From IMG/VR virus record IMGVR_UViG_3300029981_000040, positions 1 through 32,182 of that record: a stretch of 32,182 nucleotides of DNA; one strand, 5' to 3'. This document shows positions 10,000 to 28,579 of this stretch, one piece after another. The notes under the pieces are model-generated. The model searched no databases. It was not told the DNA's origin and saw nothing but the letters and a program-made list of their open reading frames with translations. How positions within the stretch are numbered: position 1 is the first letter of the stretch; the number at the start of each line of letters is the position of its first letter. The stretch is from a virus. Made by a program: the position numbers and the translations under genes.

Positions 10000-10040
10000 A
10001 AGAAGAAAGCCCTTATCGACGTGATGAGGGCTTTCTTCTT
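10000..10040. terminator. Bidirectional intrinsic terminator between tail fibre and integrase
   Basis: A perfect 14-bp stem: AAGAAGAAAGCCCT at 10000-10013 pairs with AGGGCTTTCTTCTT at 10027-10040, with a 13-nt loop. It lies between convergent genes and has T-rich sequence on the plus strand and T-rich sequence read leftward. The right arm lies inside the last codons of the integrase gene, so the integrase C-terminus and the terminator share bases. Confidence 0.85.
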
Positions 10041-11686
10041 ATCTGTATTTGAATGGCTACGGTATGCGTAAAGCTAGGAGCCACCAAAGGCCCGTGGTGC
10101 GTAGGCATACCTTTCAATTTCATGCCCCCTGGGGCGTCTGGTGGGTTCTCAGGGGGCGTGGCTTCATCTTCTGTGTCCATATAGATGACCATTTCACCTG
10201 TAAGCTGGTCATCGTGACGATCCATGCGGATTTCTGACACCAGGCCCTGGAGAATGACACGCCTGGCGTGTGGATCAGCCGTGGTAATCAAATCAGCCAT
10301 GTGAAGCGCGTAGGCCTGAAGCTGCTCATCTGATAGATTTTGTAGGGGTGTTTCCTGGGCGGTCTTGATTTCGATCAGGGCCGTTTTTAGTTCGGTTTGT
10401 TCAGCTTCGAGCGCTTCCAGTCGGTCAAGCAGCGGGCGTGAATGGCCACGGTCAGCGATGGCGGCGGTGATATTGTTCATCTTATTGCGCACAGCCGTCA
10501 GGTCGCTTTGCAGGCCGATGCGCTTTTGTTCGAGCTCTTCGAGGCGTTGGGTTTGGCGCCGCTGCAGGGCCCGGTAACTTTGGGTATAGTAGTCCGGATC
10601 ACGCAGGATCTCGGATAATTTATTAATGATGCCCTGTTCAAGCGAGTAGGCCGGAAGATGGGGCAGGTCACAATCACGGCGCCGGGATCCGCGTGTGCAG
10701 CGGTAGGATTGGATGTCGCCGTTTTTCTTTTTGGTGGTGTGCGCCCATAACGGCGACCCGCACCGGCCACAGCGGATCAGGCCGGAAAGCAGATGCTTGG
10801 ACCCTACCCGCCGGGGATGGTCTGCAACAGATTTTAGCTGAGCGCGCTGAGTGTAGCGGGCCGATATTATTTGACAATTCGTCCATGTAGCCAGATCGAT
10901 CATGGGTTTGCAATAATTTTCAATCGTCAAGGTGCCATAAACCAGGGTGCCGATATAAATTTTGTTGGCCCAGAAGGTTTGGTAGGATGTAAGTGAAGTG
11001 AACAAGCGCGTTTCGGCATTTATATCTGCCAGGGACGATCCTGACACGCGCATTTTGAAGGCGGTCTGGATGCGGACGATCATCGCCGGATCCGGCACCC
11101 AGCGCGCGGCAGTCCGGACAGATCCATCACGCCGTAAGCCGATTTCCATGGGTTGGCGCATAAAACCTGCCGGGGGGTTGCCCGGCACGCAGCCAAACAC
11201 CGTTACGAGGTCCTGCAGGCCGCGGCGGGCATCCCGGCTGACCTGACGTTTCTTCTCTTGGTTTGCGATGTCAATGATAATCTCGACGATCTGGCCATAG
11301 GGACCTTCGGGGATCGGGTCGGTCATTGAGTGAATTACGAATCCGCGCTTGCGCAAAACGGATTTGTAAAACTGGGAATCATCCAGGTCGCGCGCGAAAC
11401 GGGCATAATTCCAGATCAGCAGGCCATCCGGAAGAGACGACTCATGTTTGCTGCTCAGGTCGATCATTTCGTTAAAATGCTCACGGCCAACGACCGTGCC
11501 GCCTGAGCGCGCTTCATCGGCGAAAATAAGCGTCAGGTTGAGGCCATAACGCTCACAGAAGGCCAGGACTTCGGCTTTTTGCTGCGCGACGGATCGATCC
11601 TGCATGGGACCACCAGAATCGCGCAAATAGGTCCACAGTGTGGATCCTGATGGCAAAGTTGTAGGGGGAGGAAGATAGTCAGACAT
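10013..11686 (-). CDS. Large serine recombinase (phage integrase)
   Basis: A 557-aa protein in the normal size range for large serine integrases. The N-terminal resolvase domain (about 17-160) includes YLRDSGG with likely nucleophile Ser24, and the Arg-rich YARFARDLDD segment. A recombinase domain follows (about 165-290). Next is a zinc ribbon with Cys306, Cys309, Cys330 and Cys339 (LIRCGRCG, YRCTRG, RDCD), then a coiled coil (about 375-445) of the kind that controls directionality. It would integrate the phage between attP and attB with a separate directionality factor; none was recognised. It follows the gene at 11718-11912 by 31 bp and is probably co-transcribed with it. The ribosome site is weak. 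Confidence 0.93.
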   Translation of the reverse strand: MSDYLPPPTTLPSGSTLWTYLRDSGGPMQDRSVAQQKAEVLAFCERYGLNLTLIFADEARSGGTVVGREHFNEMIDLSSKHESSLPDGLLIWNYARFARDLDDSQFYKSVLRKRGFVIHSMTDPIPEGPYGQIVEIIIDIANQEKKRQVSRDARRGLQDLVTVFGCVPGNPPAGFMRQPMEIGLRRDGSVRTAARWVPDPAMIVRIQTAFKMRVSGSSLADINAETRLFTSLTSYQTFWANKIYIGTLVYGTLTIENYCKPMIDLATWTNCQIISARYTQRAQLKSVADHPRRVGSKHLLSGLIRCGRCGSPLWAHTTKKKNGDIQSYRCTRGSRRRDCDLPHLPAYSLEQGIINKLSEILRDPDYYTQSYRALQRRQTQRLEELEQKRIGLQSDLTAVRNKMNNITAAIADRGHSRPLLDRLEALEAEQTELKTALIEIKTAQETPLQNLSDEQLQAYALHMADLITTADPHARRVILQGLVSEIRMDRHDDQLTGEMVIYMDTEDEATPPENPPDAPGGMKLKGMPTHHGPLVAPSFTHTVAIQIQIRRKPSSRR

Positions 11687-16735: not shown

Positions 16736-17044
16736 ATGAAATCGATTCTGATCGCAAGTTTGAATAGAGTAATCAACCTTGACCAGGTTACAGACGCGAT
16801 ATTCACACCGGCGCACGACATAGATTTTTCTGAAGAACCTGGGGTCAAGCAGATAGTACACGCTGATGCAGTTCTGGATCTGACGATGACATCGGTTGAA
16901 GACAAGATCATCAGCGGCAATGACGGCGATTTTCAAGGCGTGGTTGCAGTCAGCCGGGTAATTAGCATCGAAGGCAGCGAAGCAGAACGGCTCTGGAGTT
17001 TTCTTATCGGTATCCGGCACCATCCTGTCAAACGGAGTGAATAA
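16736..17044 (+). CDS. Early protein of unknown function
   Basis: A 102-aa protein starting directly after the previous stop with GGAGG upstream (16723-16727). Mixed alpha/beta sequence (MKSILIASLNRVINLDQVTDA, then VVAVSRVISIEGSEAERLWSF). No motif recognised. The operon position is the only functional clue. Confidence 0.65.
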   Translation: MKSILIASLNRVINLDQVTDAIFTPAHDIDFSEEPGVKQIVHADAVLDLTMTSVEDKIISGNDGDFQGVVAVSRVISIEGSEAERLWSFLIGIRHHPVKRSE

Positions 17045-17046
17045 CC

Positions 17047-17304
17047 ATGCGACAAGATACCTACCCTAGCGGCGCCGCATCCTTGTTTGCGACCCACGCG
17101 CGTTCCACCACACCCAGACTCTCTGCCGCTGGCCAGCGTGTGCTTAAGAAGATCAGCAAACATTGCGAAGACATCACCTGGCTGATCGCCGGGATCGATG
17201 AAAAGGATTGGAGCAAGATTTCCGAGTTCTTGATGAATGAAAACACAGTGACCTGGCAGGAAGTCAGCCGGTTCATGGAAGTCATCACCCGGGAGGCGAA
17301 ATGA
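17047..17304 (+). CDS. Small protein upstream of the tyrosine recombinase
   Basis: An 85-aa protein with GGAG before its ATG. It overlaps the recombinase gene by 4 bp (ATGA at 17301), so the two are translationally coupled. The C-terminal 60 residues are helical (VLKKISKHCEDITWLIAGI, WQEVSRFMEVITREAK). A coupled small gene before a recombinase can be an accessory factor, but no sequence motif supports that here. Confidence 0.7.
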   Translation: MRQDTYPSGAASLFATHARSTTPRLSAAGQRVLKKISKHCEDITWLIAGIDEKDWSKISEFLMNENTVTWQEVSRFMEVITREAK

Positions 17305-18218
17305 GCACGCATTGGATCATTGAATTTACCGACTGGCTCGAACGGGAAGGCAGATCCAAGTTGACCATCGATGCATACCGCAGTGATGTGGAAATCTATG
17401 CTAACTGGTTCGTGCAGGTTGCGGATCAGGATTTCGAACCCGCCCTGCTCACTGGCCGGGATCTGCGCGCCTGGCGTGAAGCATCGATCCACGCTGAGGG
17501 CGTGGAAGGATCGACCTGGAACCGGCGCCGCGCTTCACTGCGGGTTTTCTGTACCTGGGCGTTGCGCGCTGGCCACGTGGCTGCCGATCCATTCGAAGGC
17601 ATTCGCCCGGCGGATGTGCGCGAGGCTCCGATCTTGTGGTTGGATGACAACGAATTCAACAAGGTCCTGCGCACACTTGAGCACCAAATCAACGCGGCAG
17701 CCACTGAGGCTTGGCGGGTGCAGGCAATTCGAAATCGGGCCATGGTGGCATTGATGGTTTTTGCCGGTCTGCGGGAAAGCGAAGTAGTGAATTTGCGCGT
17801 CTCTGCTCTACTGATGAGTGAGCGTAAGGGCGCCGTAAAAATTCGCGATGGAAAAGGCGGAACGTTTGCGGAGATCCCGCTCAATCATGAGGCTGTTACC
17901 GATCTGCAAGCCTGGCTTGCGGTACGTGGCGCCGCAGATGGCCTGCTCTTTGTGGGCAAGGGCAGCCAGCAGCTCACTGGCCGCCAGATTCAGCGCCTGG
18001 TGAAATCACTGGGGCAAAGCTGTGGAATTGCAAATTTGACACCCCATCGATTTCGGCACACGTTCTGTAAGCGCACCCTGGACGGGAAATATCGCCGAGA
18101 CGGTCAATCTGTCCCGCTGACGGTTGTCCAGCGTTTAGCCCGCCATGCCCGTATTTCAACAACAGCCCGCTATGCCAAACCCGGTCAACGGGACCTTGAG
18201 CTGGCGGTAGGAGCGTAG
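17301..18218 (+). CDS. Tyrosine recombinase (XerC/D-like)
   Basis: A 305-aa protein with a complete catalytic set. Residues 1-100 form the SAM-like core-binding domain. The catalytic domain has Arg158 (GLRESEV), Lys185 (RDGKGG), His249 and Arg252 (TPHRFRHTF), His282 (RHARI) and nucleophile Tyr291 (TARYAKP). The length matches XerC/D rather than large phage integrases that carry an arm-binding domain. It is an early-operon gene, so a role in resolving multimers of replicating phage DNA is as likely as integration. It is followed 2 bp later by a P-loop ATPase gene. Confidence 0.93.
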   Translation: MSTHWIIEFTDWLEREGRSKLTIDAYRSDVEIYANWFVQVADQDFEPALLTGRDLRAWREASIHAEGVEGSTWNRRRASLRVFCTWALRAGHVAADPFEGIRPADVREAPILWLDDNEFNKVLRTLEHQINAAATEAWRVQAIRNRAMVALMVFAGLRESEVVNLRVSALLMSERKGAVKIRDGKGGTFAEIPLNHEAVTDLQAWLAVRGAADGLLFVGKGSQQLTGRQIQRLVKSLGQSCGIANLTPHRFRHTFCKRTLDGKYRRDGQSVPLTVVQRLARHARISTTARYAKPGQRDLELAVGA

Positions 18219-18220
18219 AG

Positions 18221-18823
18221 ATGGAAACAAAGGATGTTTTTGAGACCGTTCGCAAATACATTTGTCAATCTGTCTGGCTTGAGAACAAGAACAATTACGA
18301 CCTGCTGGCGGCCTATGCGATGAGCACCCATGTCCGCTATTTATCCAACCGGATTATTAACCTGCAAATCCTGGGTGATCGTGGAACCGGTAAAACGGAA
18401 ATCATCAAGATAATGAAATCTCTTGTCCACACTCCAACCTTGATCAATGATGGTTACAGCCCAAGCGCTGCAAATCAAAAACTTTATCGCCGGGCCCCAA
18501 AAACTACCATCCTCCTTGATGTGGCTCAGATTGATGAATACCTGCCAATCTTTCGAGAATTTATTGACTGCCCAACTATTTTTACAACGATGAAAGAGAT
18601 GGGTCCGGATTTCTTGATTGAGCACGGCATGCATTCATGTTTCATGGTTCGGCTGAAGGCCCGCGCTGAGCACCTTCCTGAAAAGGATCAAACCATATCG
18701 GAACTTGGCATACAAGAGGTGCTGGATAACTGGCAAAGGCCGCTATGCGGGATCTTTATTGCTATGAAAGATGTAATCGATGGCGTTTTGATCGAAGCAA
18801 GGATGGCAGAATGGAAAGCATAA
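18221..18823 (+). CDS. Small P-loop ATPase
   Basis: A 200-aa protein with Walker A GDRGTGKTE near residue 50 and a Walker B-like strand TTILLDVAQIDEY near residue 103. The layout (Walker A, then S-x-S-A, then hhhhD) resembles the ATPase at 23545-25365 and helicase-type phage ATPases of the DUF927/DUF3631 kind. It is much shorter and lacks N- and C-terminal domains. It may load or drive a DNA enzyme encoded nearby: the recombinase before it or the Spo11-like protein after it. It overlaps the next gene by 13 bp. Confidence 0.75.
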   Translation: METKDVFETVRKYICQSVWLENKNNYDLLAAYAMSTHVRYLSNRIINLQILGDRGTGKTEIIKIMKSLVHTPTLINDGYSPSAANQKLYRRAPKTTILLDVAQIDEYLPIFREFIDCPTIFTTMKEMGPDFLIEHGMHSCFMVRLKARAEHLPEKDQTISELGIQEVLDNWQRPLCGIFIAMKDVIDGVLIEARMAEWKA

Positions 18824-19206
18824 AGAAGAACGAGATAAGCAATATTGTGAACACTTCTGTAAAAGATGCCAGAAGCAGCCTGGATTTTATCGATGATTTG
18901 GATGTGCTGAATGGGGCTCTGAAAATCGCGATTGAGCGCGACTATAAGACGCTGGCGAAACTGCTTAAATCCAGGATAAGCCGCATCGAAGAAAGAAAAT
19001 TAAAAGCGAAACATCCGGGGGTCAATTTTGCCGAAGTCAAAAGGATAGTGGGCAGCGGGGCAGATTATGCCCATTTGATGGCGCAATATTACTCGCTGGA
19101 TATGTTTCGCGCTGCGCTTGATTATGCCCAGGAGCATAACGCAAATAAAACGATGATTCAGACGCTAGGGCGGGAGATTCGCCGAAAGGAAAAGGCAGCG
19201 AAATGA
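18811..19206 (+). CDS. Helical protein between ATPase and Spo11-like gene
   Basis: A 131-aa protein. ATG 18811 is selected over the frame start at 18745 because AAGGA lies 7 nt before it and it only overlaps the ATPase gene end. It is almost wholly helical and basic (DVLNGALKIAIERDYKTLAK, LKSRISRIEERKLKAK). Its stop overlaps the start of the Spo11-like gene (ATGA), so ATPase, this protein and the Spo11-like protein are translated as a coupled set. It could be a linker or regulator of that complex. Confidence 0.7.
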   Translation: MESIKKNEISNIVNTSVKDARSSLDFIDDLDVLNGALKIAIERDYKTLAKLLKSRISRIEERKLKAKHPGVNFAEVKRIVGSGADYAHLMAQYYSLDMFRAALDYAQEHNANKTMIQTLGREIRRKEKAAK

Positions 19207-20081
19207 AAGAGAAGTTTTTGGATCACAAGTTCAACACGGCTTCCCTGAAGCTGGTGGATATCTGCAATTCCATCCTGGAAGAATATCGGGGCCAGGGCTA
19301 TCGTTTGTCATTGCGCCAGTTGTACTACCAACTCGTGGCGCGTGATTTCATCGAAAACAGCGTCAAAAGCTATAAGCGCACCGGCGACATGGTCTCGAAT
19401 GCTCGTTTGGCAGGTTTGCTCGACTGGGGCATGATCGAAGACCGTGGGCGTGAAAGCGTTGTGAATTCTCATTGGGATACACCAAAGGACATTCTACAAA
19501 GTGCTGCTGCCTCATTCAAGATGGACCGTTGGGATGGGCAGAGCAGTTATTGTGAAGTGTTTGTCGAGAAGGACGCCTTGAGCGGCATATTACTGCCGGT
19601 TTGCTCTGAAATGGACGTGCGCTTTACTGCCAACAAAGGCTATTCGTCATCGAGCGCCATGTATGAGGCATCAAAGCGGCTGGCGCGAGCTGGTCGGAAT
19701 GGCCTGGAACTCCACATTATCTATCTCGGCGATCACGACCCGTCAGGGATCGATATGACCCGTGATATTCGAGAGCGCTTTGAGCTGTTCACCCGAGATG
19801 GCTATCCCTTCGAGGTTCATCGCCTGGCATTGAATTACGACCAGGTGCAAATGTGGAACCCACCTGAAAATCCGGCAAAGGACTCTGATTCGCGCTATGA
19901 AAATTATTTTCTGAAGTTCGGCGAATCGTCCTGGGAACTGGATGCAGTCGAGCCTGCCACCCTGGCAGATTTAGTCCGTGATCAGATATGGGAACTGATC
20001 GACGAGGATATCTGGGAGGCGATCGCCAAAAAGGAAAAATCCTATCGTGATGAACTCAATAAACTGGCTAAAAAGTATTAG
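19203..20081 (+). CDS. Spo11 / topoisomerase VI A-like protein (Mini-A candidate)
   Basis: A 292-aa protein. Residues 37-43 read LRQLYYQ, the winged-helix motif that in TopoVI-A and Spo11 carries the DNA-cleaving tyrosine (here Tyr41 or Tyr42). A Toprim domain follows with Glu122 (VEKDALSG) and Asp177/Asp179 (GDHDPSGIDM), the metal-binding acidic residues. The C-terminal ELDAVEPATLADLVRDQI is also typical of the family. No GHKL-type B subunit gene is seen, as in the Mini-A group known from mobile elements. It may cut DNA for replication, recombination or packaging. The family call is firm for TopoVI-A-like; activity is inference. Confidence 0.8.
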   Translation: MKEKFLDHKFNTASLKLVDICNSILEEYRGQGYRLSLRQLYYQLVARDFIENSVKSYKRTGDMVSNARLAGLLDWGMIEDRGRESVVNSHWDTPKDILQSAAASFKMDRWDGQSSYCEVFVEKDALSGILLPVCSEMDVRFTANKGYSSSSAMYEASKRLARAGRNGLELHIIYLGDHDPSGIDMTRDIRERFELFTRDGYPFEVHRLALNYDQVQMWNPPENPAKDSDSRYENYFLKFGESSWELDAVEPATLADLVRDQIWELIDEDIWEAIAKKEKSYRDELNKLAKKY

Positions 20082-20090
20082 GAGGAAACC

Positions 20091-20447
20091 ATGCCAAAAA
20101 AGACAGTGAAATACTCATCCGCACTTGATAAATGCTGGGAACTAAACCTTCCGGTTCGAGGCGACCAAACTGCAGTTTACCAGCGCCTTATGGATGCGGG
20201 CTACCTTTGGGACAGCAAGATTCAGGTGTGGCTGCAATTGGACGCGGAACCAGCTGATGCCCCCAGTTCCGTGATAAGGATCCGCGTTTGGGCTGAGCAG
20301 GGCAAGGCTATGGGCGTTGCTGAGTCCGTTATCCATGGCCTCGGCAAGCAATACAAGCTGATCGAACAAAGCGGAACCTATCCATGTCGCCCGCCAAAAC
20401 AGAAGGAAGAGCGCATTTATCTCAGCTTTCTGAAGGAGACGCTATGA
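20091..20447 (+). CDS. Early protein of unknown function
   Basis: A 118-aa protein with a very strong GGAGG site. Sequence features: a basic start (MPKKTVKYSS), a compact alpha/beta middle (VYQRLMDAGYLWDSKIQVWLQL), and a Ser/Val-rich strand (SSVIRIRVWAEQG). No family recognised. It is coupled to the next gene by ATGA overlap at 20444. Confidence 0.7.
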   Translation: MPKKTVKYSSALDKCWELNLPVRGDQTAVYQRLMDAGYLWDSKIQVWLQLDAEPADAPSSVIRIRVWAEQGKAMGVAESVIHGLGKQYKLIEQSGTYPCRPPKQKEERIYLSFLKETL

Positions 20448-21170: not shown

Positions 21171-21820
21171 ACCTGATTATTGAACCTGCCAACAAAGAGC
21201 AGTTGAAGTGGGCACAGGAACAGGTCATCTTGCACCATTACCGGCATACAGCAGTAGATCCACGTTGCCGACCATTTGCTTATATTGTTTGGCTGAGTGC
21301 TGAACCGGTGGGCTGCTTGATCTACGGCAGGCCGCAAGCCACGCGCTGTTATACAGGCAAACTTACCTATGGCAGCTATCAGGATGTGCAAGCGCGCAAA
21401 GCGCGCTTTGATCGTTGGGAGATCCTGAACCTGGCGCGTGTGTGGTTATCGCCAAGCATTCAGAGAGATGGATCTGAGTATGTTCCACACGCTGCAAGCC
21501 TGGTCATTCGCGAAAGTATGAAGCGGATTGGATTTGACTACCTGATGCAAGCACCACCTGTTGATTGTGCATTCCCTTATCAAATTCGCTGCATCATGTC
21601 TTACTGCGATACGAAATATCACTCTGGTTGGATTTACATGGCCAGCCGTTTTAAGTATTCACACAAGAATGACGATGGCAAGGTTACCTATATGAAGGTC
21701 ATCCCCGGATTGACAGATCAACAGGATGCGTACATTCAATGCCTGGCTGAGATGAATAGTCGAAGTCAGCGAATCAGGGCCAAACGCAATCAACTTACTT
21801 TCAAGGAGATGATGGCATGA
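21167..21820 (+). CDS. Mom-like GNAT-fold protein (DNA modification candidate)
   Basis: A 217-aa protein translationally coupled to its neighbours on both sides (ATGA at 21167 and 21817). Three blocks recall phage Mu Mom and related GNAT-fold proteins: EPVGCLIYGRP near residue 46, WEILNLARVWLSP near 84-96, and MSYCDTKYHSGWIYMAS near 144-160, where a hydrophobic-SYxD strand, a His-x-Gly and an aromatic follow in the expected order. Mom modifies N6 of adenine to protect phage DNA from restriction. If the match holds, this gene gives the phage an anti-restriction function. The assignment is by motif memory only. Confidence 0.6.
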   Translation: MNLIIEPANKEQLKWAQEQVILHHYRHTAVDPRCRPFAYIVWLSAEPVGCLIYGRPQATRCYTGKLTYGSYQDVQARKARFDRWEILNLARVWLSPSIQRDGSEYVPHAASLVIRESMKRIGFDYLMQAPPVDCAFPYQIRCIMSYCDTKYHSGWIYMASRFKYSHKNDDGKVTYMKVIPGLTDQQDAYIQCLAEMNSRSQRIRAKRNQLTFKEMMA

Positions 21821-22077: not shown

Positions 22078-22382
22078 CAGTAGTAGAAAAGTTCCCAAAC
22101 TTCACCATTACACTGCGCAATGGGCCATGGGCGCGAGCGCTCCACAAAAAGGAACAGGCGGTACATAAGTAATCATTATGCGACATAAGACAGGCAGATC
22201 AGGGCATTTGAGTAGTTTATCAGGGTGTTAGAGCACATATCTTATGTCGCATAAGTGGAACGGTAGGGGGGGAGGGGTCGGCGGCGAAATTTCCGCCGAT
22301 TCCAAACCCGGCCAGAGGCGGCAGTGCTCGAATACTCAGAAAAAATCCAGAAAAACGGGTGAAAAACCTATGGAGAGCAACG
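22078..22382 (+). other. Non-coding gap with origin-like features
   Basis: About 300 bp without a convincing gene, directly upstream of the primase. It holds a perfect 15-bp inverted repeat (22176-22190 and 22240-22254), a third CATAAG half-site near 22164, a G-rich tract (22263-22277) and a hairpin with arms TCGGCGG/CCGCCGA (22278-22299). The combination suits a replication origin or an operator region; neither is shown directly. Confidence 0.55.
22176..22254. repeat. Inverted repeat pair TTATGCGACATAAGA
   Basis: TTATGCGACATAAGA at 22176-22190 and its exact reverse complement at 22240-22254, 49 bp apart. Each arm is itself nearly palindromic (CTTATG - 3 bp - CATAAG), so each is a plausible binding site for a dimeric protein. 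Confidence 0.85.
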
Positions 22383-23552
22383 ATGTGGAACAATTTTGAA
22401 GATGCAGTCGATGACATCAAGCGCGCCAATCCGATCGAAGATGTGGTCAAGGATCTCGGGCATAAGTTCGAGCGCGATTCTGGAAAATATCGCCGGGTAC
22501 CACACACGGGTGGCCTGGTGATCAATACCGCGAAGCAAAACTTTTTTTGGGCGGAGAAAGGCTGGAACGGCGACGTTGTCACCCTGGTTGAAAAAGAAAA
22601 AGGCTGGGAATTCCGCTCAGCGGTTGAATGGCTGGCGGACCGGGCCGGGTTGGATCGCCCGGGCTGGGGCAAGATGGATGACCAGGCGGTCAAGGCCCAC
22701 CGGCTGAAGCTTTCCATCTTCGAAATTTCACAACAGTTGTTTGTGAAATGGTTATGGGAAGATGAGGTCGCGCTCGACTATCTACGCAAGCGTGGCTTCA
22801 GCGATGAGGTCATCCGTATAAGCGGCATGGGCTTCAGCGGTCGAAAGACTGACGCGCAATATAACGAGATGCGCGGACAGTTGGGAATGTATGAAATTGA
22901 TCCGGCTTCGCCTGCTGCTGTTGGTGTGTTGGGCTACCGCGGCGACGTGGCTGCCTGGTCAAAAAAGTACAACGTGGATGTCAGCGAGCACGACTGGGTA
23001 CAGTGGGGCCAGGTATCGGGCCTTATGGGCCGTCCAGGGATCATCTATGCCCACCAATGGGCAGGCAGGACGATCTATTTCACCAGGCGCAACCTGCCCG
23101 GCTACGACACCTTCGAGGATGCAGAAGGCAAAACCAAGGAAATCAAATCTTACAACGTGCCCAAATGTCTTGCCGGAGTGCGCCAACCCTACTTTAACCA
23201 TGTTTATCGGGCGGATGCCGAAGATTGTGTCATTGTCGAAGGTCCTGCAGATGCTGAAACCTTTGGGGTCTGGGGCCTGGCCGCTGTGGCTCTTTGTGGT
23301 GTGCATGCGGAGGATGAAGGAATTCAAAGCCTAAAAGCCAGGCTCAAGAGTCACAAGAAAAAATACCTGCTGCTCGATGACGATCCCACCGGCCGCGCCA
23401 AACGCGAACGCGTGGCACAGGCGATTGGGCCATTGGTGCGGCTGGTGGATTGGTCAGATATGGAACCGGGTGAGGGGCAAATCATTGCCGAGGTCGAAGA
23501 GGTGGAAGACCTGGCCGAAACACAGAAAGACGGAGAGAACACCGATGAGTGA
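22383..23552 (+). CDS. DnaG-like primase with degenerate zinc domain and Toprim
   Basis: A 389-aa protein. ATG 22383 follows GGAGAG (22372-22377); an upstream GTG at 22359 has no site. Residues 15-92 follow the CHC2 primase zinc-domain pattern (ANPIEDVVKDLG, NGDVVTLVEKEKGWEFRSAV, WLADRAGL), but the Cys/His ligands are replaced (VPHT and WAEKG stand where CPFH and CFGC are expected). A Toprim domain follows with Glu286 (VIVEGPAD) and Asp332-Asp334 (LLLDDDPTG). It would make RNA primers or process DNA at the nearby origin-like gap. It overlaps the helicase-type gene by 8 bp. Confidence 0.85.
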   Translation: MWNNFEDAVDDIKRANPIEDVVKDLGHKFERDSGKYRRVPHTGGLVINTAKQNFFWAEKGWNGDVVTLVEKEKGWEFRSAVEWLADRAGLDRPGWGKMDDQAVKAHRLKLSIFEISQQLFVKWLWEDEVALDYLRKRGFSDEVIRISGMGFSGRKTDAQYNEMRGQLGMYEIDPASPAAVGVLGYRGDVAAWSKKYNVDVSEHDWVQWGQVSGLMGRPGIIYAHQWAGRTIYFTRRNLPGYDTFEDAEGKTKEIKSYNVPKCLAGVRQPYFNHVYRADAEDCVIVEGPADAETFGVWGLAAVALCGVHAEDEGIQSLKARLKSHKKKYLLLDDDPTGRAKRERVAQAIGPLVRLVDWSDMEPGEGQIIAEVEEVEDLAETQKDGENTDE

Positions 23553-25365
23553 ACCAGGGAAAGTTGACGCAAATCTGCTGCTCCAGGCATGGCAGACAGG
23601 CGGCATACCGGAAGATGACCAAAAGATCCGCATCCGGGCGCTGCTTGGATTATCCAAGCCCCTGATCATTGCAGTATCCGAACAGGTCGGCCAGATGCCC
23701 GATGAGGACAAGCGCCTCGGCATTTATCGCCTGGTTGACCTGCTGCGCGAGCTGGATGAGAAAGACCGGGAATTCTACCTGCGGCGGGTCGCCAAAAAAG
23801 CCGGTTCAACCGTCGCCGATCTGCGCGGCCTGCTAAAGAGTGGTGAGAAAAAAGGCACCAAGACCGAATCGGATGTTGAGCCAGACCGGATCACAGGCGG
23901 ATGGGTGCAGGGTCATCTGCTCGAATTGGTTTTTGACCCGATCAAGGTGGCCACCTGGTTCGCTGTGCGTTACCCGGATGGCCGCGTAGATCCGCACGTG
24001 GAAAAGATCACCATCGAAGGCAGAACCCTGGCGCCTATCTGGCCGAACTCTATTCTGATCAAAAATGGCGTGCGCATGCCCACCGAAATCTATGAGAAAC
24101 CGCTGCCCGAAAAGGAGCTGCTGGCCATCACAAAAGGGCATATTTACAAGTATTTTGATTTCGGCAGCAATGATTTTTTCGAAGAATTATCACCGCAGTA
24201 TGTAGGCTTCACTTATTTTGCTGATGCTTTTATGGAAACATCTTATATGCGCGCCCTGGGCGACTATGGAACGGGCAAGACCCGCTTTTTGAAGGCGATT
24301 GGCCTGATCTGCTACCGGCCGATCTATGTCACCGGCGGGTCAAGCGCTGCCAGTCTGTATCACTTCCTGGATTTCTACAAAGGCACATTGATCCTGAATG
24401 AAGCGGACTTCGGCCAGAGCGATGAAGCCAGCATCATTGCCAAAATCCTGAACGGCGGCACTGAACGGGATGAAGGCATTTCTAAGATGAAAAAAACGGC
24501 AGACGGGAACATGGAAATTGAGATGTACAACGTGTTCGGCCCCAAGGTGATCGCGACCCGGAAGGGGTTCGATGATAAGGCCATAGAATCGCGCTGCCTG
24601 ACAATGGAAATGGTACCCATGGCGCCGCATCCGCGCATCCCACGGCACCTGCCTCCCAATTATGGCGAAATTACAGCCGAAATCCGCAATCTATGGACTA
24701 CTTACCGCCTGTTCAATGCACAGGAATCGATTCACATCGATGAAACCCAGACAGATTACACCCTGGAAGCGCGGCTCAGCCAGGTCAGCGGACCGCTCAT
24801 GAGCATCATCAGCGATCCGGATGTAAAAGAACAGATGAAGATGTTCATGCGTGAATATAACGAAAGGTCCCAAACTGAGCGCTACGCCACAAAAACCGCC
24901 CGCATTGTGGAAGGCATTCTCAAGGCCTGGGCCTGGGGTCCGGTCTCTGCCAACGTGAACGACGAAAACCGGCTGTATCTTAAGGATATTGCTTTCGCAA
25001 CCAACATAGTCACCGATGATATGAACCACCGCATGGGCGATGACGATGAAGAAGAACGCGTCGATCAGAAGACCGGCCGCAAGACCGGCGGGAAAATGAC
25101 CAGCCGTGGCGTTTCGGGCATCATGGATAAATTTCTGCAACTGCGCACCTGGCGCGCGACAGATGGCATCGATGAATATAAAGGCACGATGTATATCGAC
25201 ATGAATCGGGATCTCGAACGCGTGAAAGCGCTGACCGAACGCTGGGGCGTGAAATGGCTGGAGCGTGGATCTGAAAAACGACCGATAAAGATCAATTTAA
25301 ATGACCCCGAGACTTCCAAGCGTCTGGTACAGCACGATTTACCAACCTATTACACAACCAAATAG
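23545..25365 (+). CDS. Replicative helicase-type P-loop ATPase
   Basis: A 606-aa protein translationally coupled to the primase (8-bp overlap, GGAGAG before ATG 23545). The N-terminal 130 residues are helical and charged. The ATPase core has Walker A GDYGTGKTR (about 239-247) and a Walker B-like strand TLILNEADFG (about 281-290) in which Asn replaces the usual Asp before Glu. An Arg-rich segment, IESRCLTMEMVP, follows. The layout is that of helicase-type ATPases (DUF927/DUF3631-like) found with primases on phages and plasmids. The C-terminal part is charged and probably winged-helix. Confidence 0.75.
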   Translation: MSEPGKVDANLLLQAWQTGGIPEDDQKIRIRALLGLSKPLIIAVSEQVGQMPDEDKRLGIYRLVDLLRELDEKDREFYLRRVAKKAGSTVADLRGLLKSGEKKGTKTESDVEPDRITGGWVQGHLLELVFDPIKVATWFAVRYPDGRVDPHVEKITIEGRTLAPIWPNSILIKNGVRMPTEIYEKPLPEKELLAITKGHIYKYFDFGSNDFFEELSPQYVGFTYFADAFMETSYMRALGDYGTGKTRFLKAIGLICYRPIYVTGGSSAASLYHFLDFYKGTLILNEADFGQSDEASIIAKILNGGTERDEGISKMKKTADGNMEIEMYNVFGPKVIATRKGFDDKAIESRCLTMEMVPMAPHPRIPRHLPPNYGEITAEIRNLWTTYRLFNAQESIHIDETQTDYTLEARLSQVSGPLMSIISDPDVKEQMKMFMREYNERSQTERYATKTARIVEGILKAWAWGPVSANVNDENRLYLKDIAFATNIVTDDMNHRMGDDDEEERVDQKTGRKTGGKMTSRGVSGIMDKFLQLRTWRATDGIDEYKGTMYIDMNRDLERVKALTERWGVKWLERGSEKRPIKINLNDPETSKRLVQHDLPTYYTTK

Positions 25366-26168: not shown

Positions 26169-27233
26169 ATGAAAAAACAGTTAGTCGGTTTATTGCTCTT
26201 CTGGATGATGACGTTGATGTCATGCAATATGCCAGATGCGAACACGGCAGCCACTCGCAAAACTGCGACGGCTACACCTGAGATTAAGTCGGTTGCAGCT
26301 GGATATTTAGAGCAGAAAATGTTCGATGACATGACGCAGACACAAAACCAGCGGACGGAAGTTGCATTAGGTGCCATCCTGACATTGACTCAACAGGTGC
26401 TGAATGCAACGGCCACAATGGAAGCACATCGAGAAAACTTGCAGGGTACGGCCCGTGCTGACGGGGCAACCCAGCAGGTATGGAAGGTGACTGTGGCGGC
26501 TCAAGTGGCAGCTGATACTGCTACAGCTGAGGCGCATGTTGCGGAAACCCAACAGGCCTATGTGATGGCGACTGGTACAGCACAGAGGATGGCAGTTGAG
26601 TCTACCCGCACGGCAGAAGCCCAGGATACGGAGACACAGCAGGCAGTATTGGGTCTGACTGCCACGATCGCAGCGCGTGAAACGGCTACCGCAGATTACA
26701 AGACCGAGCAGGCCCCATTTGTCCAGGCGCAACAGACGGCGGTCAAGGCGCAGGCTGAAAGTGCAGAACTGGCAGCCAGCCGTGAACGGATGACAAATGG
26801 CGTGATCGCCTGGGGGCCCTGGTTGATTGCCGTGGTGGCCGTGGCAGCCTTTATCTTTGTGACGATTCGCAAAAGCCAGGTGGGGACCATTGATCGCGAT
26901 GAAAACGGCATGATGCCTGGTGTGGTGATATTTAATCATGGTAGAAAGCAGTTTATCGTCCCTGACCGGATGTTCTCACCGGTCCTGACGATGGATCGTA
27001 ATGGCATTTCAGCGCCACAAATGGCGACGCCGGAGCTGCAGGAAGGCACTACGCGGCGCGCGCAAGCCGTTGAAGCGATCAATGCCTTACCACAACAGGC
27101 TCAAAAACAGGGATTTGGCTTAATGGCGCAGACATTTAACACCACTTCGCGACCCGCCATCGAAGTCATGGAACCTGGGCAGGTGCGTGGATGGGTCGAT
27201 GAAGCCGAGACAAAGCTCGGCGAGGAGCTCTAA
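26169..27233 (+). CDS. Lipoprotein with long helical domain and C-terminal TM segment
   Basis: A 354-aa protein. The signal peptide ends in the lipobox LMSC with Cys19. Residues about 30-205 are a long Ala/Thr/Gln-rich helix, with repeats such as TATMEA and TATAEAH, of a kind frequent in Anaerolineae. A TM segment lies near 213-235 (WGPWLIAVVAVAAFIFVTI), followed by a cytosolic domain of about 115 residues. The protein therefore has an outer lipid anchor and an inner domain and could bridge the envelope. It ends on the start codon of the translocase (TAATG), which suggests direct partnership. Confidence 0.8.
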   Translation: MKKQLVGLLLFWMMTLMSCNMPDANTAATRKTATATPEIKSVAAGYLEQKMFDDMTQTQNQRTEVALGAILTLTQQVLNATATMEAHRENLQGTARADGATQQVWKVTVAAQVAADTATAEAHVAETQQAYVMATGTAQRMAVESTRTAEAQDTETQQAVLGLTATIAARETATADYKTEQAPFVQAQQTAVKAQAESAELAASRERMTNGVIAWGPWLIAVVAVAAFIFVTIRKSQVGTIDRDENGMMPGVVIFNHGRKQFIVPDRMFSPVLTMDRNGISAPQMATPELQEGTTRRAQAVEAINALPQQAQKQGFGLMAQTFNTTSRPAIEVMEPGQVRGWVDEAETKLGEEL

Positions 27234-28579
27234 TGTTAGCAATTCAGAATAATTACATGGAAAAGGCGCAGCGAGTTGTGCGGATCGTTGAAGCTGTACT
27301 TGGCAGTCGCACCGGAACGGATCCGGCATTGATTGAACGCTGGGTAATGACACGCACAGATCAGGGCGCGGTCTGGTTGTTTGCTGTCCTGGATGACAGG
27401 CGGCTGCCAAAGTTTGAACCATATGAGGCCGCGGCGCATCATTTATCGTCGAGTTTGCGCGGCATGCCGGTCTTCCTGGGCAATCATACCGGGCTGCGCT
27501 ATGGAATTCTGTTGTCGCAGAAACCCCAGTTGCCCAAGTTGGTCGAATTCCATGGATGGAGACGCGGCGTGATGCAGTTAGGTGTGGATATGCGCGGCCA
27601 GGCAGTTGAAATTGGCTATGGCGAAATCAATCACACACTGGTGGCTGGCATTACCCAGTTTGGTAAGTCTAATTTTCTCAGGCTCATGGCTCTCCAGGCG
27701 CGCGATGAAGGCTGGCAGCTTGCGCTGGCTGACCCGGATGGGCGGACGTTTACGAAATTTGAGCAGGATCCTGCGCTGATCTGCCCTGTGGGCAAGACCC
27801 TGGAAAGCTGCCTGCATGTGATTGGCCGGGTACAAGAGTTGATTAACGAACGCGCAAAGCTGTACGACCAGGCGGGGAATTCTCCGGACGGACTAGATGA
27901 ATACAACGAGTGGGCGCAAGAGAGCAGCATAGAACCCCTGCAGCCAGTCCTGGTCGTTCTGGATGAGTTCAACGGCACGGTGCTTGGCACAGGTGGCGTA
28001 CGTGGTTCGTTTGCCAATGCCGCGACACAGGTGGCCTGGCGCGCGGCGAAATTCGGGATCCGGCTGATACTGGCCGGGCAGGATTTCAGCAAGGACATCG
28101 TTGGACCGGTTCGCGAGCAAATGACAACCCGGATCTGCCTGCGTGTGGCAAACGAGCGTATTTCTGATGTAGTGTTGGGCAAGACCGGCGCCGAACGTCT
28201 GGTGCTGCCTGGCCGGGCTATGACTAATCGATGGGAAACCATCCAGACCTATTTTGTGCCCAAGGCGCTGTTGGTGCGTACTGACTCTAATGGTCTAACG
28301 GATACCGAAAAGCGGATCGCCGAATTTGTTTGGGCGAATTACCGGGGACGTATGACCATGCCTGCTCTGCAGCAGTATGGTCTCGGCGAACGTGCTGCCC
28401 GGCGGGTGCGGGCCGATTGGCAGCAGCGCGGCCTGGCTGAAGTGCGGCCCGATCAGGACAATGCGCTCTGTTTGACCATAAAAATGGATGTCCAGACCGG
28501 TCTGGACGGTCTGGACGCGGTCGTGACGGGTCTGGGCGCCCAGGCCGGTCTGGACGGTAATGGGGTGGTGGAGGCCTAA
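27233..28579 (+). CDS. HerA/FtsK-type DNA translocase ATPase
   Basis: A 448-aa protein without TM segments. Walker A is G139-ITQFGKS146, preceded by VAG in the FtsK/HerA style; Walker B is VLVVLDEF with Asp244 and Glu245. A sensor-like ILAGQDF follows near residue 280. The C-terminal 60 residues before the tail look like a winged helix (MPALQQYGLGERAARRVRADWQ), as in FtsK gamma or TraB, which read DNA motifs. The tail itself is Gly/Leu/Asp-rich, encoded by repeated GGTCTGGAC. It lies in one operon with a lipoprotein and membrane proteins, so it probably moves DNA across the envelope. Confidence 0.85.
   Translation: MLAIQNNYMEKAQRVVRIVEAVLGSRTGTDPALIERWVMTRTDQGAVWLFAVLDDRRLPKFEPYEAAAHHLSSSLRGMPVFLGNHTGLRYGILLSQKPQLPKLVEFHGWRRGVMQLGVDMRGQAVEIGYGEINHTLVAGITQFGKSNFLRLMALQARDEGWQLALADPDGRTFTKFEQDPALICPVGKTLESCLHVIGRVQELINERAKLYDQAGNSPDGLDEYNEWAQESSIEPLQPVLVVLDEFNGTVLGTGGVRGSFANAATQVAWRAAKFGIRLILAGQDFSKDIVGPVREQMTTRICLRVANERISDVVLGKTGAERLVLPGRAMTNRWETIQTYFVPKALLVRTDSNGLTDTEKRIAEFVWANYRGRMTMPALQQYGLGERAARRVRADWQQRGLAEVRPDQDNALCLTIKMDVQTGLDGLDAVVTGLGAQAGLDGNGVVEA
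28490..28555 (+). repeat. GGTCTGGAC repeats at the 3' end of the translocase gene
   Basis: GGTCTGGAC occurs at 28499-28507, 28508-28516 and 28547-28555, with GGTCTGGGC at 28529-28537. The reverse complement, GTCCAGACC, is at 28490-28498 and forms an 18-bp perfect palindrome with the first copy (28490-28507). All copies lie inside the coding region. Confidence 0.85.

What the first reader, a model, noticed from the sequence alone, without database searches (positions are those of the whole stretch)
18221..20081. Spo11/TopoVI-A-like protein coupled to a small ATPase and a helical protein, with no B subunit
The protein at 19203 has both the LRQLYYQ cleavage motif and the Toprim acidic residues (E122, D177, D179). 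TopoVI normally needs a GHKL ATPase B subunit, and none is seen. Instead a 200-aa P-loop ATPase and a 131-aa helical protein are translated in overlap with it. Mini-A proteins lacking B subunits are known from mobile elements, but a cassette with this ATPase is, to my knowledge, not described. It may be a DNA-break machine for phage recombination or replication.
Basis: partly seen in the sequence, partly recalled or inferred. Interest (0 to 1): 0.82.

Follow-up and report, generated by a model that had tools for sequence, protein, structure and literature searches.

The report
Phage Mini-A topoisomerase-like DNA-cutting gene
A virus that probably infects Chloroflexota bacteria carries a known kind of stripped-down topoisomerase VI DNA-cleaving gene (Mini-A); the small ATPase and helical genes beside it are not its conserved partners, whereas a tyrosine recombinase gene is beside it in all the nearest relatives that could be checked.

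Summary
The three ORFs are real and correctly placed. The 292-aa protein (19203-20081) is a full-length Mini-A, the B-less topoisomerase VI-A relative already described from phages. It matches phrog_6247 (1.5e-109) and is 48% identical to the Pseudomonas phage NP1 Mini-A named in a review. Tyr42, Arg38, Glu122, Asp177 and Asp179 are invariant in 66 homologues. The gene is under strong purifying selection. No GHKL B subunit was found in the window or in 50 related virus records.

The proposed ATPase-helical-Mini-A cassette is not supported. Neither the 200-aa ATPase nor the 131-aa helical protein has a homologue beside any other sampled Mini-A, and both are missing even from relatives whose Mini-A is 73-78% identical. 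The slot they occupy is variable. The ATPase is a distant, stand-alone version of the AAA+ helicase domain of the phage's own primase-helicase, and it has lost the Walker-B glutamate.

What is conserved is a catalytically complete tyrosine recombinase next to Mini-A, in the window and all 13 nearest relatives with usable flanks, usually beside a separate integrase. Mini-A most likely acts with replication and recombination (inferred). This is a new member of a known kind with a modestly interesting neighbour.

The parts
19203..20081 (+). Mini-A (TopoVI-A/Spo11-like): winged-helix domain with R38 and Y42, Toprim domain with E122, D177 and D179
   Evidence: phrog_6247 E 1.5e-109; 48% identity to phage NP1 Mini-A; invariant catalytic residues; model pLDDT 91.9, best PDB match M. 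mazei Topo VI A chain
17301..18218 (+). Tyrosine recombinase, catalytically complete (R158, K185, H249, R252 and Y291 invariant in 15 sequences); the conserved neighbour of Mini-A
   Evidence: PF00589 E 3.6e-26; adjacency in relatives
18221..18823 (+). Small P-loop ATPase, 200 aa; distant stand-alone relative of the AAA+ domain of primase-helicases; Walker-B Glu replaced by Val101; lineage-specific
   Evidence: profile match E 1.3e-7 to the AAA+ domain of the phage's own primase-helicase family; alignment; no close homologue
18811..19206 (+). 131-aa helical protein, no homologue found; lineage-specific
22359..23552 (+). Primase half (CHC2 zinc finger plus Toprim) of the replication protein
   Evidence: phrog_6444 E 9.8e-16; Toprim E 2.8e-4; conserved downstream of Mini-A in the clade
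23377..25365 (+). AAA+ helicase half of the replication protein (ORF limits; likely true start at the ATG at 23545); its AAA+ domain family is what the small ATPase matches
10013..11686 (-). Large serine integrase, so the tyrosine recombinase beside Mini-A is probably not the lysogeny integrase
   Evidence: phrog_95 E 3.6e-53; PF00239 E 2.2e-14

Best explanation
The protein at 19203-20081 is a phage Mini-A, a B-subunit-free TopoVI-A-like enzyme. By homology it should work as a dimer in which Tyr42 of one chain and the Toprim metal site (E122, D177, D179) of the other cut both DNA strands and stay joined to the 5' ends. It sits in the early replication/recombination operon of a temperate tailed phage that probably infects Chloroflexota. 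Its stable neighbours there are a catalytically complete tyrosine recombinase and a Toprim primase/AAA+ helicase. The most likely role is to cut, and perhaps reseal, replicating phage DNA so that tangled or joined genomes can be separated or recombined. The small ATPase and helical genes are a lineage-specific insertion into a variable slot between recombinase and Mini-A. The ATPase is a reduced relative of the replicative helicase AAA+ domain, not a stand-in for a B subunit. Shown: family membership, conserved catalytic residues, purifying selection, no GHKL gene detected, recombinase adjacency, non-conservation of the ATPase and helical genes. Inferred: dimerisation, cleavage chemistry, the role in phage DNA metabolism, the host.
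For: Family: phrog_6247 'DNA topoisomerase' E 1.5e-109 over the full length; 48% identity to phage NP1, named as the Mini-A example in PMC7614492; 29% identity to an archaeal plasmid protein annotated 'Topo Mini-A'. Catalytic residues invariant. Fold: model pLDDT 91.9, top PDB match the Topo VI A chain in the cleavage state, probability 0.98. Selection: pN 0.18-0.24 with saturated pS. No GHKL in the window or 50 related records. Recombinase adjacency: the window and all 13 relatives with Mini-A at least 62% identical and usable flanks, plus L018 at 58%; recombinase and Mini-A abut directly in L017, L018 and L087. A separate serine or second tyrosine integrase is present in 10 of the 11 viral records with the pair. 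ATPase as a helicase-domain relative: E 1.3e-7, alignment, plasmid primase-helicase matches. ATPase and helical genes absent elsewhere. Host: nearest genomic copies at 63-66% identity are in Anaerolineae/Chloroflexota assemblies.
Against: No activity has been shown here, and the reviews found report none for a Mini-A. Profile-profile comparison with archaeal TopoVI-A is weak (hhalign P 0.0086-0.018), so the deep link rests on collinear motifs, the fold match and the literature. The Foldseek match has E 4.8e-3 and TM 0.34. Recombinase adjacency is confined to one clade: L059 (61%), L019 and L020 (58%) lack it, so it could reflect shared ancestry of the phages rather than joint function.
Confidence: 0.72

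Rival explanations
1. The ATPase and helical protein form a dedicated complex with Mini-A that gives ATP control in place of a GHKL B subunit, specific to this phage lineage.
For: The three genes are adjacent and overlapping (13 nt and 4 nt), no GHKL is encoded nearby, and the P-loop is intact.
Against: No relative keeps the pair, even at 73-78% Mini-A identity. The whole operon is equally tight. The ATPase belongs to a replication-helicase AAA+ lineage and lacks the Walker-B Glu. P-loop genes within two genes of Mini-A are rare: 2 of 526 neighbour ORFs by motif, 1 AAA hit among 148 immediate neighbours.
Confidence: 0.1
2. Mini-A and the adjacent tyrosine recombinase act together as one system, for example a topology-controlled genome resolution or recombination module in these phages.
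For: Adjacent in the window and in all 13 nearest relatives with flanks; direct abutment in three; recombinase catalytic residues invariant although its sequence diverges fast; usually additional to a separate integrase.
Against: Restricted to one clade; order differs in L007 (Mini-A first); most Mini-A genes elsewhere have no tyrosine recombinase beside them.
Confidence: 0.35
3. Mini-A is a nuclease for attacking host DNA or competing elements rather than a replication/recombination enzyme.
For: Distant TopoVI-A-like Toprim proteins (JetD/MksG, Gabija) are defence nucleases (PMC10123090, PMC13040014), and DUF2399 matches weakly (E 0.05).
Against: The catalytic Tyr is invariant here, whereas MksG lacks an equivalent. 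No SMC-like partner genes were identified in the window proteins scanned. It lies in the early replication operon.
Confidence: 0.12

Closest known systems
Mini-A of Pseudomonas phage NP1 and the wider phage Mini-A family (PMC7614492, PMC8185306; phrog_6247)
   Same: Full-length homology (48% identity), same catalytic residues, same size, no B subunit, in a DNA replication/recombination gene block.
   Different: NP1 has an ATP-dependent ligase upstream and a Sak4-like protein downstream; this phage has a tyrosine recombinase, the small ATPase and the helical gene upstream.
Topoisomerase VI A subunit / Spo11
   Same: Collinear R-x-L-Y-Y, V-E-K-D-A and D-x-D-P-x-G motifs; best PDB fold match is Topo VI A.
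   Different: No B subunit; Pfam TP6A_N does not detect it; profile similarity is weak.
Topoisomerase VIII
   Same: Encoded on mobile elements; related A-type core by literature (PMC8185306).
   Different: Topo VIII carries a B-type ATPase part; none is present here.
Wadjet JetD / MksG
   Same: Toprim nuclease with TopoVI-A-like fold; DUF2399 matches weakly.
   Different: MksG lacks the winged-helix catalytic Tyr and works with an SMC-type complex; neither feature fits here.
AAA+ domain of phage and plasmid Toprim primase-helicases (for the small ATPase)
   Same: Shared N-terminal helices, Walker A and surrounding sequence.
   Different: Stand-alone 200 aa, no primase part, Walker-B Glu lost, C-terminal half not alignable.

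Membership tests
Mini-A | Full-length homology to a named Mini-A | tested here: met
   48% identity over 292 aa to phage NP1; 29% to annotated archaeal Topo Mini-A
Mini-A | Conserved winged-helix Tyr and Arg | tested here: met
   R38 and Y42 invariant in 66 sequences
Mini-A | Toprim Glu and DxD | tested here: met
   E122, D177, D179 invariant
Mini-A | No GHKL B subunit | tested here: met
   PF02518 absent from the window and from 50 related records; records may be fragments
Mini-A | TopoVI-A-like fold | tested here: met
   Top PDB hit Topo VI A, probability 0.98, E 4.8e-3, TM 0.34; met but weak
Mini-A | DNA cleavage activity | not testable with these tools
   Needs purified protein
Topoisomerase VI / VIII | GHKL ATPase subunit or domain | tested here: not met
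Topoisomerase VI / VIII | TP6A_N (PF04406) match in the A subunit | tested here: not met
   Not reported for P0001 at E up to 1; the same model finds archaeal TopoVI-A genes
Wadjet JetD / MksG | DUF2399 above its curated cut-off | tested here: not met
   13.8 bits against a cut-off of 23.4
Wadjet JetD / MksG | SMC-type partner genes alongside | tested here: not met
   No such genes among the window proteins scanned
   No homologue beside Mini-A in about 160 loci
Primase-helicase AAA+ family (small ATPase) | Significant profile match to the AAA+ domain | tested here: met
   E 1.3e-7 with search space set to 20,819
Primase-helicase AAA+ family (small ATPase) | Intact Walker A and Walker B | tested here: not met
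   Walker A intact; Walker-B Glu is Val101 and the following Asp is Gln103

The most novel reading that the evidence does not exclude
In a clade of Chloroflexota phages, a Mini-A DNA-cleaving enzyme and an extra tyrosine recombinase form one conserved two-enzyme module for phage genome processing, with variable cargo genes such as the mini AAA+ ATPase inserted between them.
Probability: 0.3. Interest if true: 0.6.

Novelty: new member of a known kind. Interest (0 to 1): 0.33.

Why it matters
What Mini-A proteins do is still open in the reviews found. The steady pairing with a tyrosine recombinase in one phage clade gives a concrete, testable hint about their role. Removing the supposed ATPase partner prevents a false lead.

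Tried and rejected
ATPase as a B-subunit substitute: rejected because it is not conserved and belongs to the primase-helicase AAA+ lineage. A Mini-A + tyrosine recombinase + FtsK trio: FtsK-like genes occur in only 3 of 21 records, including the window. PDB sequence searches with single sequence and profile: no relevant match. hhalign against archaeal TopoVI-A: weak. The motif regex was faulty for the Toprim Glu and is not used; conservation comes. Structure of the ATPase: only the N-terminal half is reliable (mean pLDDT 56.7, residues 113-200 below 50), so its Foldseek AAA+ matches count only as fold-class support. The family-defining paper (doi 10.1093/nargab/lqz021) is not held, so Mini-A criteria come from reviews and general knowledge.

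Full report
Observation. The motif LRQLYYQ spans residues 37-43. Across 66 homologues R38, Y42, E122, D177 and D179 are invariant and Y41 is nearly so, so Y42 is the likely nucleophile. The window is a 32,182-base virus record with head, tail and tape-measure genes, a large serine integrase at 10013-11686 on the minus strand, and an early operon with primase, helicase and a Mom-like gene. The overlaps between the three genes are real. Genes from 16736 to 20447 nearly all abut or overlap, so overlap alone does not single out these three.

Identity of the TopoVI-A-like protein. It matches phrog_6247 'DNA topoisomerase' over its full length, E 1.5e-109. Of 50,697 phage records 76 match, with the best at 48% identity, including Pseudomonas phage NP1, which PMC7614492 uses as its Mini-A example. 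An archaeal plasmid protein annotated 'Topo Mini-A' matches at 29% identity, E 5e-19. The AlphaFold2 model is confident (pLDDT 91.9). Its best PDB match is the M. mazei Topo VI A chain in the cleavage state, probability 0.98, E 4.8e-3, though TM is only 0.34. Profile-profile comparison with archaeal TopoVI-A is weak (P 0.0086 and 0.018), but the R-x-L-Y-Y, VEKDA and DxDPxG motifs align collinearly. The gene is under strong purifying selection: pN 0.18-0.24 while pS is saturated.

No B subunit. The GHKL family PF02518 is absent from the window and from 50 related virus records. These records may be fragments.

The ATPase and helical protein are not conserved partners. The only other copy found is a 100% identical contig. 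Neither gene has a match in the phage collection. The ATPase has none in 84,980 genomes by the pattern method. Neither has one in about 160 Mini-A loci by phmmer, apart from weak ATPase hits to primase-helicases. The two closest relatives, L007 (Mini-A 78% identical) and L008 (73%), lack both; L008 has a PAPS-reductase-like gene in that slot, by inspection of its sequence. Among 526 neighbour ORFs only two had a canonical P-loop by motif, and among 148 immediate neighbours Pfam found one AAA protein.

What the ATPase is. The weak phmmer hits all fall in the AAA+ domain of primase-helicases. A profile built from that domain matches the ATPase at E 1.3e-7 with the search space set to 20,819 ORFs; the phage's own helicase was among its five seed sequences. 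Acinetobacter plasmid primase-like proteins match the same segment. Walker A is intact, but the Walker-B Glu is Val101 and the following conserved Asp is Gln103. The C-terminal half cannot be aligned or modelled reliably.

What is conserved near Mini-A. A tyrosine recombinase (17301-18218) lies beside Mini-A in the window and in all 13 relatives with Mini-A at least 62% identical and usable flanks (L007, L008, L009, L010, L011, L012, L013, L016, L017, L044, L086, L087, L088), plus L018 at 58%. L014 and L015 end too soon to tell. L059 (61%), L019 and L020 (58%) lack it. The two genes abut directly in L017, L018 and L087, while other loci carry different small genes between them. Recombinase residues R158, K185, H249, R252 and Y291 are invariant in 15 sequences. 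In 10 of the 11 viral records with the pair there is also a serine integrase or a second tyrosine recombinase, so the Mini-A-linked recombinase is probably not the lysogeny integrase. A Toprim primase/AAA+ helicase follows downstream in the clade. The closest genomic copies are in Anaerolineae and other Chloroflexota assemblies, so the host is probably Chloroflexota (inferred).

Mechanism. By homology with TopoVI-A and Spo11 (PMC12203943), Mini-A should make a 5'-phosphotyrosyl double-strand break as a dimer. Whether it reseals is unknown. Its place in the early operon beside a recombinase and replication genes suggests a role in phage DNA replication, recombination or genome separation. None of this was tested.

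Verdict. The core observation is right and the protein is a new member of a known family. The proposed ATPase cassette is a lineage-specific neighbourhood. The recombinase linkage is the part most worth following.

Noticed in passing
window 22359-25365: The primase-helicase is split into two overlapping ORFs here and in L007 and L008, but is one protein of about 1000 aa in most other clade members; the second half probably starts at the ATG at 23545.
   Followed up: partly
window 21173-21820: Mom-like DNA modification protein (Pfam Mom E 3.5e-8), with a relative near Mini-A in L020.
   Followed up: partly
window 27233-28579: FtsK/SpoIIIE-like ATPase, found in only 3 of 21 records searched (the window's, L008's and L016's).
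   Followed up: yes
L008 2210-3448; L020 4098-5270: Related genes that look PAPS-reductase-like occur near Mini-A, in L008 in the slot held by the ATPase and helical genes in the window.
   Followed up: no
L010, L013, L014, L015 (small gene just upstream of Mini-A): A small protein family (cluster c12, 101-148 aa) with a shared ENAPLAL motif recurs in the slot before Mini-A in four relatives.
   Followed up: no
L130, L136, L146, L155: Mini-A relatives lie on contigs of archaeal assemblies (Methanimicrococcus, Nanoarchaeota, Nitrosopumilus).
   Followed up: no
L070 and L097: A viral contig and a Calditrichaeota genome contig give the same neighbour coordinates around Mini-A, so probably the same prophage.
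   Followed up: no
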